Part shown: in pieces, positions 20,387 through 64,000 of the stretch
Layout: every line of letters starts with the position of its first letter
Position numbering within the stretch: the first letter of the stretch is position 1
Assembly (NCBI RefSeq): GCF_017654505.1
Contig: NC_054559.1
Span: 3,046,781-3,110,780 of the forward strand
Direction of reading: 5' to 3'
DNA: 64,000 nucleotides
Origin: Polyodon spathula
Lineage: Eukaryota; Chordata; Actinopteri; Acipenseriformes; Polyodontidae
Position numbers and translations under genes: made by a program
Notes under the pieces: model-generated
What the model was told of the DNA's origin: nothing
The model's input: only the letters and a program-made list of their open reading frames with translations
Database searches by the model: none

Positions 20387-22429
20387 ATTATTGGTAATAC
20401 ACAGCAGTGAGCAAGGAGTCAGTCAACACTTTTTGAAATCAAAGTGTTTCTTATTTTATCCTCGTTATTGTAATGCCAGTAAAACGCTAAACTTCATTTG
20501 TGGAGTGCTGTAAATAGGATTACTCTCGCATGACCTTGCTGGACTGTCACTAAACTGTTTCATATTTGTTATTGTTATTGTAATGCCAGCAATAAGATAA
20601 ACAGGTCTTTTCACAACTCCTTCATTTGTATATTGAACTACAGTGTTAGTAGGAGACTGTAACATGATTCTCACAAAGTGCTGGACATTTGTTTTCTCTG
20701 AACTGTTATAACTCTTAGGTTTTATTGTTTATTTTAATGCCAGCAATGAGCCAAGTGATGTCTATAAACATTGTGACAGGTTTGAAGTGTCTTCAGGTGC
20801 TTATTACAGCAACAAGAATCTGATTAAACAAACTCTTGGCTTTAATAAAAATAAAAGAATTGTGGTAATATTTAATGTACTTACTTTAACAACCAACATT
20901 ATATTTATGTTCAGATGCCATGTTTAATTATTAACACAATGATAAGTGGTGAAAAAATGGAATTGGCCATTTTTGAAAACCAGACATTTGCTATTCCCAC
21001 GCATGGAAAGTCAGTAAACTATATATATTATTGAACAGTACAGTATACACAGTGTCTTCCTATAGCACAGTATCACATTAAACAGTACAGTATAGGCAGT
21101 GTCACATTGAACAGTACAGTATACAGTGTCACATTGAACAGTACAGTATACACGCTAGTGTCTTCATTTTATATTTTGTAGTGCTGGGACAAATATCCGA
21201 ACACATTTTTTTTACGGCCAATGAGAAAGAGCTCTGTGTGATTTGAGATTCTAATATACATATATAAACAAACCAGATTATGCGCTTGTAAGCATAGTGA
21301 TCTCGGGAAGGCCATCTGGGTCAAAAAAGCGTTGTTCTGCTTTAGCGCGAATGAGAACCTCATAACAAAAAAGGCATGCACAACATTCTGAAATGCCTCG
21401 CTTAAACAAGGGGGCCCAACTTGCTGGAAATGTTGTGTTGTGATTTTTATACAGATTGTATATATTATATATTTTTGTTGCGATTTTGTTATGTGCAATG
21501 TAATAAACTAGAACAAAAATGGTTAGACTTTTTAGCTTCCACAGAACGCCATTTCCACGTTTGTTTTATTTGAAGTGTTTAAAGTTAAAAAAAAAAAAAA
21601 TTGGTTTCGTTCAGCTACAAAAAGGCACAAGTGAACCTCATGTTATTACTTTTATGAAAACGTGTCTACGGCCACTGTTGACGGCGAAGAAATGGCAACG
21701 GCAAGGAACCTTTAAAAAAATGCTGCAGAGGTCGCGCTAGCCTTTAAAAATGTGCATTTGTAAAAAGCATACCATCTCAAAATCTGCGTTTTCAACCAAA
21801 CACCTGCGTTTTTACATATTGCACCAACATAGTTATATTATTTTCCAGTGTAACTATTTCAGATTAACGAAGTTAATATGCAAAACAGTTCACAGTATAA
21901 ATAATGGTAGTAGAAATAGACATAAAGACATGCTTACCATGAAACGTTTTCTTTCGAAAATCCTCCGTTCATGCGACGTAAAAATCAGTGGAACATATAC
22001 ATAAACAGTCTTGCTGTTAAAAGTTCTTTAAATTTTCCTTTTAGCATCAAGTCAAAAAAAATGACTCGTTCTCTTTCCAAATCAAAACGATACAGCTCCT
22101 CACGTAAACGACAGCGTTGCACCGTGCTACTTGTTGCACAGGTATCGTAATTGCAATTGCTGCAAGTTTTCCAAAAGCAGGAAATATGTCGGAATAGTTA
22201 TCAATAAAAACCCCGCAGCCCTCATCCATGGCCTTAAAACGTTAGTTTACCTACCGTAAACCTGATTCCCTGAAAGAGAAGATGGCCACCAAACATCGTT
22301 ATGGGAAACGTGTACCAGAGCCGTCGCGAGGGAAGAAGGAACGGCAGTATACGACCAAGGTCAACGGAATGAACGTTCAAACTCGAGGACCCTTGTGCCC
22401 ACAGAGGGAAATGAGCGATCTACCACATT
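20387..22429. other. No recognisable gene; short tandem repeats
   Basis: A 20-30 bp tandem repeat with core gaacagtacagtata lies at about 21035-21150. A recurring ttattgtaatgccagcaat motif (20460-20760) marks an unknown dispersed repeat. No coding sequence is supported. Confidence 0.5.
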
Positions 22430-39012: not shown

Positions 39013-39797
39013 GTATGTACTGTAATAAATACAAATACACCAGAATGTGATACTGGATGGGAGACTGGGACACCAGTTCTGACCATATGAAAGGGAGACT
39101 GGGACGCCAGTTCTGTTTTTGGTATTTGTTAAAACTCCAAAGACTACTTTCTTAAAAAAATGTACGGAAGTTTATTAACGGCTTTGCTAGTTATTATTCC
39201 GTTTAATTTCAGCATAGACAGTTCAGGGTGTTACGAGACGTTCCCAGTGTTAATTACTCTTCATTTGGTGTTTCTTAGTTTGTAGCAAAAGTATTATTTT
39301 TCTTTAATGTTTGCGTGTGGTCAGGGACAATGACGGTTCTCGCAACTTTGAAGTTTCTGTGTAAGAAAAGGTACGCCGATAACGATTCGTGTTCAGTTTC
39401 CAAGTAGCATACGATTACAGGTAGATGAGTACAGTTTGTATTATTATGTATTTAATGTTATAAATGATGACGGTTCTGTGATTTCATATTGAAATTCAGT
39501 AAAATAATTAATTTGGGAATCTGGAACCAAGTCCCCAATAATGTTGTTGATGCTGACACCCTGTGATGCTTCAAGAAGCTGCTTGATGAGATTATGGGAT
39601 CAATAAGCTACTAACAATCAAACGAGTAAGATAGGCTGAATGGCCTCCTCTCATTTGTAAACTTTAATATGTTCTTATAATGCATTCTGTTAATTAAAGT
39701 AGTATTTTAGGTAAGGACTAGGAATTACCAACCTGCTAAATGTAATCTTCATTTAAGTGTGTAAATGTTGTTGATGATAATAATAATAATAATAATA

Positions 39798-57120: not shown

Positions 57121-59841
57121 CTATTTTCTGTTCTGAATGCCCCTTTTTCTAAAACTCCATTTGTGACCCCTGGTCCTTGTTTCTTTTTTCAGGCTGAAAA
57201 AGTCCCTTGGGTCGACACTGTCAATACCTTTTAGAATTTTGAATGCTTGAATTAGGTCGCCACGTAGTCTTCTTTGTTCAAGACTGAACAGATTCAATTC
57301 TTTTAGCCTGTCTGCATATGACATGCCTTTTAAGCCCGGAATAATTCTGGTCGCTCTTCTTTGCACTCTTTCTAGAGCAGCAATATCTTTTTTATAGCGA
57401 GGTGACCAGAACTGAACACAATATTCAAGATGAGGTCTTACAAGTGCATTGTACAGTTTTAACATTACTTCCCTTGATTTAAATTCAACACTTTTCACAA
57501 TGTATCCGAGCATCTTGTTAGCCTTTTTTATAGCTTCCCCACATTGCCTAGATGAAGACATTTCTGAGTCAACAAAAACTCCTAGGTCTTTTTCATAGAT
57601 TCCTTCTCCAATTTCAATATCTCCCATATGATATTTATAATGTACATTTTTATTTCCTGCGTGCAGTACCTTACACTTTTCTCTATTAAATGTCATTTGC
57701 CATGTGTCTGCCCAGTTCTGAATCTTGTCTAGATCATTTTGAATGACCTTTGCTGCTGCAACAGTGTTTGCCACTCCTCCTACTTTTGTGTCGTCTGCAA
57801 ATTTAACAAGTTTGCTTACTATACCAGAATCTAAATCATTAATGTAGATTAGGAATAGCAGAGGACCTAATACTGATCCCTGTGGTACACCGCTGGTTAC
57901 CACACTCCATTCTGAGGTTTTTCCTCTAATCAGTACTTTCTGTTTTCTACATGTTAACCACTCCCTAATCCATGTACATGTGTTTCCTTGAATCCCAACT
58001 GCGTTCAGTTTGAGAATTAATCTTTTGTGCGGGACTTTGTCAAAAGCTTTCTGGAAATCTAAATAAACCATATCATATGCTTTGCAATTATCCATTATCG
58101 ATGTTGCATCCTCAAAAAAATCAAGCAAGTTAGTTAGGCACGATCTCCCTTTCCTAAAACCATGTTGACTGTCTCCCAGTACTCTGTTACCATATAGGTA
58201 ATTTTCCATTTTGGCTCTTATTATAGTTTCCATAAGTTTGCATATAATAGAAGTCAGGCTTACTGGTCTGTAGTTACCTGGTTCAGTTTTGTTTCCCTTT
58301 TTGTGGATCGGTATTACGTTTGCAATTTTCCAGTCTGTCGGTACCACCCCTGTGTCAAGAGACTGCTGCATGATCTTGGTTAGCGGTTTGTAAATTACTT
58401 CTTTCATTTCTTTGAGTACTACTGGGAGGATCTCATCCGGCCCAGGGGATTTGTTTATTTTAAGAGCTCCTAGTCCCTTTAACACTTCTGCCTCAGTTAT
58501 GCTAAAGTTATTTAAAACTGGATAGGAACTGGATGACATGTGGGGCATGTTGTCAGTATCTTCCTTTGTAAAAACTTGTGAAAAGTAATCATTTAACATA
58601 TTTGCTATTTTTTTTTCTTCCTCTACGATTTTGCCATTTGTATCTCTTAAACATTTAATCTCCTCTTTGAATGTTCTCTTGCTGTTGTAATATTGGAAAA
58701 ACATTTTGGAATTGGTTTTAGCTCCCTTAGCAATGTTCATTTCTATTTCTCTCTTGGCCTTTCTAACTTCCTTTTTGACTTGCATTTGCAGTTCTGTGTA
58801 CTCTTTCTGTGTACTTTCTTTTTGGTCCTTTTTTAATGCTCTGTAAAGTGCCTTTTTTCGCTGAATATTTTTTTTAATTGATCTATTAAACCATTTTGGC
58901 AATTTAGTTTTACATTTAGATTTGTCTACTTTAGGGATATAATTGTTTTGCGCCTCTAGTACTACATTTTTGAAGAACAACCATCCTTCTTCTGTGGGTG
59001 TTTTCTCTATTTTACTCCAATCTACTTCTGTTAGTCTCTGTTTCATACCTTCATAGTTTGCTTTTCTAAAATTGTAAACCTTAGCTTTAGTCTTTACTTT
59101 TGAGGATTTAAAAAACACTTCAAATGAGACCATGTTGTGGTCTGAGTTTGCCAGTGGTTCTCTGACCTCTGTTTTAGTTATTCTATCTTCGTTATTTGAA
59201 AAGACTAAATCAAGGCATGCCTCCCCTCTAGTGGGTGCCTTCACAAATTGTGTTAGGAAGCAGTCATTTGTCATTTCCACCATTTCTATTTCATCCTTCG
59301 CGCTACCCACCGGGTTTTCCCATTTTATTTGGGGGAAGTTGAAATCCCCCATTAGTATGGCTTCTCCTTTGCTACACACATTTCTAATGTCATTGTATAA
59401 CAGATTATTGTGCTCACCGTCTGAATCTGGCGGTCTATAGCATGCTCCTATTATTATGCCTTTTGAATTTTTGTCTGTTATTCTGACCCATATTGATTCG
59501 GTTTTATTTTCTTTGTCCAGGTTTAACACCTGGGCTTCAAGACTGTTTCTTATGTATAGCGCTACCCCTCCTCCTCGTCTGTCCTGCCTGTCTTTCCTAT
59601 ACAGTGTATACCCACAAATATTATATTCGTCCCCATCACTCTCAGATAACCACGTTTCTGTAACACCTATCACATCATAGTTACCTGTTAGTGCAGTAGC
59701 TTCAAGTTCTAGAATTTTGTTTCTGATACTTCTAGCATTTAGATAAACACATTTAATGGTTGTCTTACCTGAGTTGTTGTTCTTGTTTTGATGCGGTCTC
59801 CCTTCTGTTTTTTTGTTGATTTCTCCCCCCTTCCTTTCTAG
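57121..59841 (-). pseudogene. LINE ORF2, 3' end broken
   Basis: Reading from the TTTAAAC site (59847-59841) in the -1 frame, the endonuclease and RT are open for about 900 codons with the same motifs as 15371-18217 (LNARSIRNK, SDHNMV, VPQGSVLGPLLF, FADDTK). The frame shifts at 57152 (one extra A in ctaaaactcc), and a deletion of about 45 bases near 57119 removes the final codons (…FFTQRIVRVWNQLP region). The catalytic core is intact but the C-terminus is not. Confidence 0.85.
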
Positions 59842-60785
59842 TTTAAATGCTTCCGAACCTGCTCGAGGATCTTTTCTCCAAGTAGACTAGTTCCCTTGTT
59901 ATTTAAATGCAGTCCATCCCGTCTATACAGATAGTCCTCGTTGTAGAAAGTGGTCCAATGATCAAGATAGGTGAAGCCTTCCCGTGTGCACCACGTCTTC
60001 AGCCATGCGTTTTGATTAATTATTTCCAGCTGTCCATATGGTCCTTTGCAAGGTGCGGGTAGTATACCAGAAAATACCACAGTTTTGGTTTTCTCTTTTA
60101 ATTTCCTTCCTAGCTCTCTGAATTTGTTTTGCAGGGATTTTGGTCTGTCTCTTCCAATGTTGTTTGTACCGATGTGGACGACTACTACCGGGTCGTCTCC
60201 TGTTCGTTCTAGGAGCCTGTCCACGTTCTCAGTGATGTGCTTGACCGAGGCTCCCGGAAGGCAGCACACTGTTGTAGTAAGGGGGTCCAAACTGCGAACT
60301 GAACTTGCTGTGTTTCTCAATATGGAGTCCCCAACAATCATGACCTCCCTTCTTTTTGCTGTCTGGTCACCACTGTCAATGGGGTCCTGGATGTTGTTCC
60401 TTTCATTCTCTTGTTGTTGGTTCTGCTCATCACAATTCTGAAGTGACTCAAATCTGTTGGTTGTTTTGATTTCTGGTGGTTGTGTTTGACGAAGTTTCTT
60501 TTTTTCCCTGCTTCTGCCTACCTGAACCCAGCTGTTCTGACCTTCTATCTCCCTGGTGGCTTTCAGTCTGTTAGGGGTGATGCAGACTTCCATGAATTGT
60601 GGGTGTGCCAGTTCCTCAAGATCTTGTTGCTGTCTCACTTCTTCCAGCTCCATTTCTAGCATGCTTACTAGTTTATGCAAATCCTGGATCGCGCGGCACT
60701 TTACGCACACTTGGTTTAGCTCCGCTGGGTTTTCTCGGATTTCCCACATCAAGCAGGTGTCACAGATTACTGGCTTGAAGACCAT
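59838..60785 (-). CDS. LINE ORF1, intact SGNH-esterase protein
   Basis: ATG at 60785-60783 in context caacATGG, 315 residues. Cys pairs CDTC (8-11) and CVKC (27-30) form a probable zinc finger. A coiled coil (about 35-60) precedes a Gln/Glu-rich linker and an SGNH hydrolase domain with VGDSILRN (Ser near 152), HIGTNNIGRD and DGLHLNNKG (near 290). Esterase-type ORF1 proteins are known in CR1 and L2 elements; proposed roles are RNA and membrane binding. It ends KHLN-stop with TTTAAAC overlapping the last codons. This is the only unbroken ORF1 in the window. Confidence 0.85.
   Translation of the reverse strand: MVFKPVICDTCLMWEIRENPAELNQVCVKCRAIQDLHKLVSMLEMELEEVRQQQDLEELAHPQFMEVCITPNRLKATREIEGQNSWVQVGRSREKKKLRQTQPPEIKTTNRFESLQNCDEQNQQQENERNNIQDPIDSGDQTAKRREVMIVGDSILRNTASSVRSLDPLTTTVCCLPGASVKHITENVDRLLERTGDDPVVVVHIGTNNIGRDRPKSLQNKFRELGRKLKEKTKTVVFSGILPAPCKGPYGQLEIINQNAWLKTWCTREGFTYLDHWTTFYNEDYLYRRDGLHLNNKGTSLLGEKILEQVRKHLN
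59841..59847 (-). other. Candidate -1 frameshift heptamer TTTAAAC
   Basis: Same arrangement as 15365-15371: T TTA AAC TAG in the ORF1 frame, with ORF2 open in the -1 frame. The distance from the ORF1 stop to the common ORF2 position is 167 bases in both copies. Confidence 0.55.
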
Positions 60786-60867
60786 GTTGAGGGTTTTTTT
60801 TTTTTTTTTTTTAAGTTTAGTTTCTTCTGCAGCCGTCAACCTGCTTTCAAACTGCTTCGAAACTTTC

Positions 60868-61808
60868 CCCAATGTCCTCTGTTTTCTGATTAAAGCAATT
60901 CAAGATGCAATTTCTCCTTTCTGCTTCGAAACTGCTCTGTACTTTTCCACGCCTGTACTTCTCCCACTCGCTGTCGCTTCCACTCGCTGTCGCTGGGAAG
61001 ACTGCCTCGTTTAACTGCGTTGTTCTGCTGTGCTGTCGGCTCCTCCCCTCGCCCGTGTCTCAAAACGGCGCTGAATTTGAATCAGCTGCTCCGAGTTTCA
61101 GCTTGTTTGTTATCAGAAAAACACACGCGGCTGTGTTTCCCCAATGTCCTCTGTTTTCTGATTAAAGCAATTCAAGATGCAATTTCTCCTTTCTGCTTCT
61201 AAACTGCTCTGTACTTTTCCACGCCTGTACTTCTCCCACTCGCTGTCGCTTCCACTCGCTGTCGCTGGGAAGACTGCCTCGTTTAACTGCGTTGTTCTGC
61301 TGTGCTGTCGGCTCCTCCCCTCGCCCGTGTCTCAAAACGGCGCTGAATTTGAATCAGCTGCTCCGAGTTTCAGCTTGTTTGTTATCAGAAAAACACACGC
61401 GGCTGTGTTTCCCCAATGTCCTCTGTTTTCTGATTAAAGCAATTCAAGATGCAATTTCTCCTTTCTGCTTCTAAACTGCTCTGTACTTTTCCACGCTGTA
61501 CTTCTCCCACTCGCTGTCGCTTCCACTCGCTGTCGCTGGGAAGACTGCCTCGTTTAACTGCGTTGTTCTGCTGTGCTGTCGGCTCCTCCCCTCGCCCGTG
61601 TCTCAAAACGGCGCTGAATTTGAATCAGCTGCTCCGAGTTTCAGCTTGTTTGTTATCAGAAAAACACACGCGGCTGTGTTTCCCCAATGTCCTCTGTTTT
61701 CTGATTAAAGCAATTCAAGATGCAATTTCTCCTTTCTGCTTCGAAACTGCTCTGTACTTTTCCACGCCTGTACTTCTCCCACTCGCTGTCGCTTCCACTC
61801 GCTGTCGC
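60868..61808 (-). repeat. 272-bp tandem 5' monomers of CR1 LINE
   Basis: gcaattcaagatgcaatttc recurs at 60895, 61167, 61439 and 61710 (spacing 272, 272, 271), giving three full monomers and a partial one. Each holds a GC-rich stretch (minus strand ggcgaggggaggagccgaca). The copies meeting at 14332 have only one monomer between them. Confidence 0.9.
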
Positions 61809-61912: not shown

Positions 61913-62252
61913 AAGACTCTGGACTTTGTTGGTCAAACGGTTTTCAAACAGCAGCAGTTTGTTGTTCGGTGTGCGTTTCGATAAGATTTGTGGCAGCCAT
62001 TTTGACATTAAAATTTATCACAGCAGCTACTGCTTCGCAAACTTGATGTGGGTTTGGATGCTGATGACATATGCCAAGTGTCAGATCAATCGCTTCACCG
62101 GTTCCTAATAAGATTTCGAAAAGTTTTATCGAAAAATGCGTCAGGGTGCCAATTGCGGCAACGCAGCAGCACAATTTTTGCAGCATCTGATAGCCAATGT
62201 ATCCAAAAGCTTCCCAAGCCTTGCTTAGAGGCCTAATAATTATAATATTCAA
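61913..62252 (+). mobile_element. Degenerate unknown element, copy A
   Basis: gatttgtggcagccatttt, actgcttcgcaaacttgatg and gatgctgatgacat are matched by the reverse complement of 63720-63850. Translated, LLRKLDVGLDADDI resembles LLRKLDAGLNADDI from the minus strand of copy C. Coding origin likely; family not recognised. Confidence 0.6.
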
Positions 62253-62756: not shown

Positions 62757-62860
62757 TGGCTTGTGTGAGATCATCAAAGACATTGTAAATGACAAAAAGT
62801 GCACAAAACAAAGTACACAGCAGTGATACATTCAGTCCTGGGGCCATGCTTTTTAATTTA
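62757..62860 (+). repeat. Repeat segment X (direct)
   Basis: tggcttgtgtgagatcatca through ttcagtcctggggccatgct. Its base-by-base complement, in the same left-to-right order, closely resembles 62861-62975. Confidence 0.7.
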
Positions 62861-63500
62861 CCCGAACACACTCTATTAGTTTTCTTTGTTGGAACAGTTA
62901 CTTTCGTTTATAGACCCACTAAATTAAGTCAGGGGGGGGGGACCTCCGGGGGGGTACGAATAAATTTATAATCATGACAAAAGGGTTCGTTCCTAATCCT
63001 TTCGGATTTAAAAGAATTAACAATGTCAAAAAAAATTTAATAATAAATAAAAAATCCTACGATGGGTATTTTGAAAAATTTTGACGACGGAGAACAGGAC
63101 GAAGGTTTTACACTATCTAGTCAAACGTGATTTTTCGACCTTGTAACCGACAGTTATACTGTTACATAACGATGATTCCCTGCTATCGGGACCTTTAACC
63201 GCGACACTGTGTACAGCTATTTTTAACAGTTTCGCTTTATAGAAGAATAGGAACCCTTAAGTTACTTCGGTAACCTAAGATTACAGTTGAACCGTTTAAC
63301 TGTATCTGTCGTAAGTTACTAGACTTAGTTCACCACGCTTTCGCTTCAAAGGTACGCTATTTTAAAATACACTTAGTTAGAATTTCGGTGTTGTTTACTA
63401 CTTTAACGCGGGGGAATTGTGTTTCATGACGACTGCTATGGCAAATTACCCGGTTTACAACAAGGTTGATGAACGTTTCAAATTCGTTTTAAATGCATAA
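62861..63500. other. Segment homologous to its flanks only as an unreversed complement
   Basis: Complementing each base without reversing gives sequence matching 62757-62860 and then 63501-64000 in collinear order. Example: 63136-63154 complements to gctggaacattggctgtca, against gctggatacattggctgtca at 63621-63640. CpG is unusually frequent here (about 24 CG against 10 GC in 63001-63480), as expected if a CpG-poor sequence had been complemented or read backwards. Most likely a data artefact. Confidence 0.75.
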
Positions 63501-64000
63501 GATGCATTGTTAAAGTTTTTTATTATTTATTTATTTTTAAAAGGCTGCCAAGCTAAAACTTTAAACTGCTGCTGCTTCGCAGCTGTGTGACTGATCAGGT
63601 TCTGACTTGGCAACTAACAAGCTGGATACATTGGCTGTCAGAACAACTGAAAAAAAATTTGCTGCTGCGTCCTTGCAATTGGCGCCAGGACACATTTTTC
63701 GAAATTTTAAACCTTTCGAAATCTTCTTCTTGACTAACTCCAAACTTCAAAGCATTGATCTGACACTTGGCAATATCATCAGCATTCAAACCTGCATCAA
63801 GTTTGCGAAGCAGAAGTGGCCAGCGATAAATTTCTTGTCGAAATGGCTGCCACAAATCTTTAAAGTTACTTGGAATTTGTTGCTTTGACGACTCAGTTTT
63901 CTTAGTGGCAAACGGTGTTAAAATCAAGGAAGCCACCAACAGCGGGGAACGATCGTTCTACCGGTTTCCATGCATCAAACTTTAGAATTTGACGTAGTCG
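63501..64000 (-). pseudogene. Degenerate unknown element, copy C
   Basis: Minus-strand frame 63939-63595 contains KDLWQPFRQEIYRWPLLLRK, LDAGLNADDIAKCQINAL and WRQLQGRSSKFFFSCSDSQC. Copy A encodes a similar but broken version. No recognisable family. Runs off the window edge. Confidence 0.5.

What the first reader, a model, noticed from the sequence alone, without database searches (positions are those of the whole stretch)
62861..63500. A 640-base segment is the complement, not the reverse complement, of its neighbours
Complementing 62861-63500 base by base without reversal gives a sequence collinear with flanking DNA. 62861-62880 becomes gggcttgtgtgagataatca, against tggcttgtgtgagatcatca at 62757-62776. 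63195-63214 becomes aattggcgctgtgacacatg, against aattggcgccaggacacatt at 63677-63696. 63136-63154 matches 63621-63640. Further blocks (cagcattcaa, gcgataaa, cccatgctt) fall in the same order over about 600 bases. CpG excess in the segment fits. Antiparallel DNA synthesis, inversion, transposition and template switching all give reverse complements, so this orientation has no known biological route. An assembly or file-handling error is the leading hypothesis; if raw reads support it, it would be remarkable.
Basis: seen in the sequence. Interest (0 to 1): 0.9.

Follow-up and report, generated by a model that had tools for sequence, protein, structure and literature searches.

The report
Half-converted raw-read patches in assembly

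Summary
Complemented without reversal, 62861-63500 scores 196 against its joined flanks (0 of 300 shuffles, max 78); as-is, reversed and reverse-complement forms score 29-40. It is not unique. A second complement-only stretch follows past the window (about 63864-64604). A third, 50 kb on, sits in phase inside a 45-base minisatellite: 83.0% identical to the unit, flanking copies 97-99%. A whole-genome search with the complement of an abundant LINE gives 41 matches; a shuffled query gives none. In 4 of 10 fetched LINE places, normal and complement-only LINE abut within one base. Nine patches pooled carry 9.0 indels per 100 aligned bases against 1.5 in nearby normal LINE, with transitions 0.38 against 0.59 of substitutions. 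This looks like uncorrected long-read letters. The likely cause is a gap-filling or read-stitching step that reversed opposite-strand reads without complementing them. No reads could be checked; the program is not identified. It is not a biological feature.

The parts
62861..63490 (.). S1: complement-only stretch (left edge 62854-62862, right edge 63444-63492)
   Evidence: Four-form alignment with shuffles, 5-mer composition, edge scans; its complement matches repeat copies at other loci, best E 5.5e-15
63501..63863 (+). Normal copy of the dispersed repeat beside S1; its normal homology ends at 63860 or 63863 in all 10 loci compared
   Evidence: 1149 first-look candidates in the genome, 40 scored, 58 matches; BLAST to 10 loci
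61920..62205 (-). Inverted normal copy of the same repeat
   Evidence: 61983-62205 matches 63860-63623 at 77%; 61920-62205 matches family loci in the opposite sense
63864..64000 (.). Start of S2, a second complement-only stretch that runs on past the window to about 64604 (L002 4865-5604); normal homology resumes at 64605 in 9 of 10 loci
   Evidence: 5-mer stretch 64049-64607; complement of 63930-64620 scores 128 against 64621-66000, 60 shuffles 30.6 +- 4.0, max 43; edges
57401..58600 (-). LINE stretch (inside the ORF 57121-59886) whose complement was used as genome-wide probe
   Evidence: 41 complement-only matches; shuffled control none; as is 1043 first-look candidates, 40 scored

Best explanation
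62861-63490 is a complement-only, not reverse-complement, copy of a dispersed repeat, and it is likely one of many patches in this assembly where raw long-read letters from the opposite strand were reversed but not complemented before being pasted in. The steps are: contigs meet at a repeat and leave a gap or a disputed overlap (inferred); a gap-filling or read-stitching step inserts a piece of one uncorrected long read (inferred from the error pattern); for reads on the opposite strand the letters are reversed without being complemented, so order and place are right and every base is its partner (shown as a sequence relation, inferred as a program step); later polishing would not mend it, because no correct read aligns to such text (inferred). 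In S1 and S2 the pieces also overlap or misplace their flanks and look like a diverged copy, so normal and complement-only repeat text alternates here.
For: Orientation: complement 196 against 29-40 for the other forms, 0 of 300 shuffles. Recurrence: S2; a complement-only run inside a 45-base minisatellite (score 491.5 in complement form against 22.5-74.5 in the others; 200 shuffles max 30), in phase with the clean copies to about 1 base on the left and 3 on the right; 41 complement-only LINE matches genome-wide, shuffled query 0. In 3 of the 30 strongest complement-like stretches of a 269-kb survey the complement matches the flanks with scores of 127-207; the other 27 score 38 or less. Placement: LINE coordinates continue within one base across a junction in L034, L036, L038 and L043. 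Errors: nine patches pooled have 9.0 indel events per 100 aligned bases (132 insertions, 56 deletions) and transitions 76 of 200; nearby normal LINE has 1.5 (47 and 73) and 330 of 562. L036: normal copy with 0.5 substitutions, 0.2 insertions, 0.2 deletions per 100, then from the next base 5.7, 6.4 and 0. Minisatellite: 20 insertion and 9 deletion events in 431 bases, while flanking copies are 98.8% and 97.3% identical. S1: 32 gap events against the family consensus, 9-13 in 13 other copies.
Against: No reads were seen and the program is not identified. S1 itself is not cleanly in place: its match to the left flank is weak and its edges are uncertain. Its identity to the joined flanks, 63.5%, is too low for raw-read error alone, so a diverged source copy must be assumed; a genome search with its complement found only one match, 66% identical, so no source is known. 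Whether S1 is insertion-heavy, or indel-rich at all against the inverted arm, depends on alignment settings (Fisher p 0.02, 0.59, 1.0). The minisatellite patch shows 19 transitions among 37 substitutions, so the loss of transition bias is not seen there; patches in L041 and L043 are not insertion-heavy. Of 10 LINE places, L039 has no normal LINE nearby, and L035, L037, L040, L041 and one side of L043 show overlaps, jumps or duplications.
Confidence: 0.88

Rival explanations
1. Same artefact, but S1 is a noisy reading of this very place rather than of a diverged copy of the repeat.
For: In three-way comparison with the inverted arm, S1 has 3 to 10 times more private substitutions than the neighbour (40 to 5, 28 to 3, 21 to 2; 40 to 13, 66 to 8, 73 to 8). 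Aligned to the neighbour, S1 shares 14 of 24 of its private sites, the other copies 0-7.
Against: Aligned to the family consensus it shares only 5 of 23 (others 0-5), and it is no closer to the neighbour (191) than to the consensus (199). Noise alone would need an error rate near 0.6, which would spoil the composition (25.3 observed; 5.5 +- 6.2 for ordinary DNA and 10.2 +- 6.2 for this site at error 0.6). Under simulated noise 3% of runs reach the observed share of sites at which S1 agrees with the inverted arm.
Confidence: 0.07
2. A file-handling slip after assembly complemented stretches of finished, polished text in place.
For: Would also give complement letters in the right order, and in 4 of 10 LINE places the coordinates abut within one base.
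Against: Finished text would be as clean as its surroundings, but patches carry six times the indels of nearby LINE (9.0 against 1.5 per 100), the minisatellite run is 83.0% against 97-99%, and in L036 error sets in at the very base where the orientation changes.
Confidence: 0.04
3. Complement-only DNA is physically present: some process copies or joins DNA in parallel orientation.
For: The relation itself is certain, and it recurs in repeats.
Against: No known polymerase or joining reaction works in parallel orientation (general knowledge). The patches coincide with read-like errors and with abrupt switches inside otherwise clean copies. S1 as is occurs once in the genome, so no complement-only copy has multiplied; S2 as is did not complete.
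Confidence: 0.005
4. Ordinary inversion, inverted repeat, mirror repeat or chance similarity.
For: The repeat family does occur inverted here (61920-62205), and the window has reverse-only matches.
Against: Reverse complement scores 34-40 and reverse 34, at shuffle level or just above it (7 of 300 shuffles reach the reverse-complement score; 87 of 500), complement 196-221. The reverse-only matches of the window lie elsewhere, mostly in minisatellites.
Confidence: 0.005

Closest known systems
Long-read gap filling (PBJelly, LR_Gapcloser, TGS-GapCloser), with overfilled and negative gaps
   Same: Uncorrected read letters between contigs, sometimes overlapping the flanks. Fill identities of about 87.7% (LR_gapcloser) and 88.6-95.2% (PBJelly) in a simulated test (PMC8848313, passages); negative and overfilled gaps (PMC3504050, passages); need to correct inserted raw segments (PMC7476103, passage).
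   Different: Fills in those accounts are in normal orientation; complement-only fills are not mentioned in the passages that I saw.
Missed-adapter PacBio reads
   Same: A long-read artefact in which both strands of one place appear in one read, about 1% of reads (PMC3504050, passage).
   Different: Gives reverse complements, not complement-only text.
DBG2OLC-style stitching of raw reads into a backbone
   Same: Raw reads are patched one after another and then corrected by aligning reads to the backbone (PMC5004134, passages); used for the paddlefish assembly of PMC8042750 (passage).
   Different: No orientation fault is reported in the passages seen; that this genome is that assembly is inferred.

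Membership tests
Uncorrected long-read fill in an assembly | Indel-rich differences confined to the patch | tested here: met
   Nine LINE patches 9.0 against 1.5 indel events per 100; L036 switches at one base; minisatellite 83.0% against 97-99%
Uncorrected long-read fill in an assembly | Right sequence at the right place between the flanks | tested here: inconclusive
   Met in the minisatellite and within one base at a junction in 4 of 10 LINE places; overlaps, jumps or no neighbour in others. S1 overlaps its flanks.
Uncorrected long-read fill in an assembly | Patch letters found in a raw read | not testable with these tools
   No reads available
Uncorrected long-read fill in an assembly | Fills from same-strand reads appear in normal orientation | tested here: inconclusive
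   One LINE piece, L041 1263-1489, is raw-like in normal orientation (7.4 insertions, 0 deletions per 100), 836-981 less so (4.3 and 0.7); no systematic count made
Inversion or inverted repeat | Reverse-complement similarity to the surroundings | tested here: not met
   Reverse complement 40 against complement 196
Mirror or simple-sequence repeat | Low-complexity match, or one that also appears reversed in place | tested here: not met
   Match region is complex (44-51 different trinucleotides); reverse form 34 against the flanks

The most novel reading that the evidence does not exclude
The chromosomes of this fish physically hold complement-only copies of repeats, made by an unknown error-prone copying process that runs parallel to its template.
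Probability: 0.005. Interest if true: 1.

Novelty: not a real feature. Interest (0 to 1): 0.38.

Why it matters
A complement-only patch is invisible to tools that try only forward and reverse-complement strands: it looks like unique sequence, would attract no reads in polishing, and could break exons or be taken for orphan or lineage-specific DNA. One LINE probe found 41 matches, and the 269-kb survey holds three stretches of about 1.8 kb in all, some 0.65% of its bases; if that rate held genome-wide (a crude extrapolation from one region that was chosen for having patches) the file would carry several megabases of such text. It is cheap to detect: search with complemented repeats, or scan for exchanged CpG and GpC counts.

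Tried and rejected
Noisy copy of the neighbour: first read, demoted. Target-site-like TTACCCG at both edges (62858-62864 and 63446-63452): a shared word of 7 or more occurs at 5.3% of 2000 random place pairs, so not used. Right edge at 63444: raised, weakened and by composition. 39078-39390 as another complement-only stretch: second-best composition score of the window, but its complement has no match to its surroundings; left as ordinary. Protein homologues of 63595-63957(-): none below 0.001. tRNA and Rfam scans of the window: none. Pfam on six ORFs: none for 63595-63954. Literature: ten searches, seven of them aimed at such a fault. Two of these found no paper; the others list only 5-20 papers each (of 12,566, 10, 277, 73 and 31), and none of the listed titles or abstract starts is about complement-only patches. 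Of ten papers I saw passages only.

Full report
Observation. 62861-63500 read as its complement, in the same left-to-right order, matches the surrounding sequence; the other three forms do not. Against the joined flanks the scores are 196 for the complement and 29, 34 and 40 for as is, reverse and reverse complement; 300 dinucleotide-preserving shuffles of the complement reach at most 78. On a core of 581 bases the figures are 221 against 26-34, with 0 of 500 shuffles reaching it, and 200 other places of the window treated in the same way reach at most 51 in complement form. Composition says the same without alignment: CG 31 and GC 11 where the window is CpG-depleted, and a 5-mer model makes 62854-63487 the strongest complement-like stretch of the window with 59.2 bits, next 19.9. 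The left edge is firm to a few bases; the right edge lies between 63444 and 63492.

What it is related to. The flank 63506-63863 belongs to a dispersed repeat: 1149 first-look candidates in the genome, 40 scored, 58 matches. The complement of S1 also matches copies at other loci, best E 5.5e-15 (7 of 10 loci compared). S1 scores 199 against the family consensus and 191 against its neighbour, and has 32 gap events against the consensus where 13 other copies have 9-13 under the same scoring. Pure noise on the neighbour cannot easily give both the low identity (63.5%; an error rate near 0.6 in simulation) and the well-kept composition (25.3 bits per 300 bases, against 24.9 +- 10.3 for complemented ordinary DNA and 5.5 +- 6.2 at 60% error). 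S1 is therefore read as a diverged copy of the family plus read-type errors. This is an inference; no source copy was found (one genome match to its complement, 66%).

It is not alone. Ten kilobases around the site (L002) show a second complement-like stretch, 64049-64607. The complement of 63930-64620 matches 64665-65298 with score 128; 60 shuffles give 30.6 +- 4.0, max 43. Joined, the two complement-only stretches align collinearly with the joined normal blocks (score 298; 807 of 1064 aligned columns equal). In a survey of 269 kb of the contig these two rank first (52.0 and 32.1 bits); of the 30 best stretches, three have a complement-form flank score of 127-207 and 27 have 38 or less. The third of these (rank 5 by composition) is a 45-base minisatellite. 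Clean copies at 112527-112693 (98.8% identical to the unit) and 113125-113199 (97.3%) enclose 431 bases that are the complement of the same unit. They are in phase with the copies to about 1 base on the left and 3 on the right, and 83.0% identical, with 37 substitutions (19 transitions), 20 insertion and 9 deletion events.

Genome-wide test. The complement of 1200 bases of an abundant LINE was searched in the whole genome: 40 candidates, all scored, 41 matches at E <= 0.001, best 3.2e-65, 73-91% identical. A dinucleotide shuffle of that query gave no candidate. The LINE as is has 1043 candidates, of which 40 were scored. Ten of the 41 places were fetched and dissected. Nine have normal LINE within the fetched stretch, one (L039) has none. 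In four, LINE coordinates run on across a junction within one base: L034, L036, L038 and L043. L042 leaves 7 LINE bases unaligned and L037 about 26 on one side; L035 overlaps by 5 and 13 bases; L041 duplicates LINE; L037, L040 and one side of L043 also show jumps. For nine of the ten the best of the four forms was the complement-only one each time, with scores 151-475 against 22-34 (L039 was not run there).

Error pattern. Those nine patches pooled have 9.6 substitutions and 9.0 indel events per 100 aligned bases, 132 insertions to 56 deletions, and 76 transitions among 200 substitutions. The normal LINE pieces near them have 7.2 and 1.5, 47 to 73, and 330 of 562. In L036 the normal copy has 0.5 substitutions, 0.2 insertions and 0.2 deletions per 100; from the very next base the patch has 5.7, 6.4 and 0. 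Not every patch is insertion-heavy: L041 has 1.6 insertions to 2.5 deletions and L043 3.3 to 3.3 per 100. One normal-orientation piece looks raw as well (L041 1263-1489: 7.4 insertions, 0 deletions per 100), as expected if fills from same-strand reads were pasted correctly; this was not counted systematically.

Mechanism. Shown: the orientation, its recurrence, in-phase placement in several cases, and the error pattern. Inferred: that the letters come from single uncorrected long reads, that opposite-strand reads were reversed without being complemented, and that polishing failed because no correct read aligns. Published gap fillers do leave raw letters: TGS-GapCloser's authors write that inserted raw segments need correction (PMC7476103, passage), LR_gapcloser fills averaged about 87.7% and PBJelly fills 88.6-95.2% identity in a simulated test (PMC8848313, passages), and the PBJelly paper describes negative and overfilled gaps (PMC3504050, passages). 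A complement-only fault is in none of the passages that I saw, and the searches aimed at it listed no paper about it.

Organism. The LINE ORF is 89% identical to an Acipenser sinensis protein over 45% of the query. The genome has 1,541,705,134 bases in 4204 contigs. A table in PMC11425059 gives 1,542,083,420 for American paddlefish (passage), and PMC8042750 describes a 1.54-Gb paddlefish assembly made with Platanus, DBG2OLC, SSPACE-LongRead, SSPACE_Standard, GapCloser, GapFiller and Pilon (passages). That the window comes from that assembly is likely but not shown, and no program is singled out.

Verdict. The best account is a systematic assembly artefact, not biology. The physical alternative has not been tested against reads; it is only made very unlikely.

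Noticed in passing
L007 3527-4199 (C26:3159307-3159979; window-scale 112527-113199): A 45-base minisatellite whose middle 431 bases are the complement of the unit, in phase with clean copies on both sides: the clearest single case.
   Followed up: yes
L034-L043 and 31 further matches listed: Complement-only LINE pieces on many contigs of the genome; only ten were fetched.
   Followed up: partly
window 39078-39390 and 22230-22396: Next most complement-like compositions of the window, without complement-form homology to their surroundings; patches without matching flanks cannot be told from ordinary CpG-rich sequence here.
   Followed up: partly
window 60864-61808: A 272-base unit repeated 3.5 times at 99% identity next to the repeat locus.
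   Followed up: no
L041 1263-1489: Normal-orientation LINE piece with 7.4 insertions and no deletions per 100 bases: perhaps a raw fill the right way round.
   Followed up: partly
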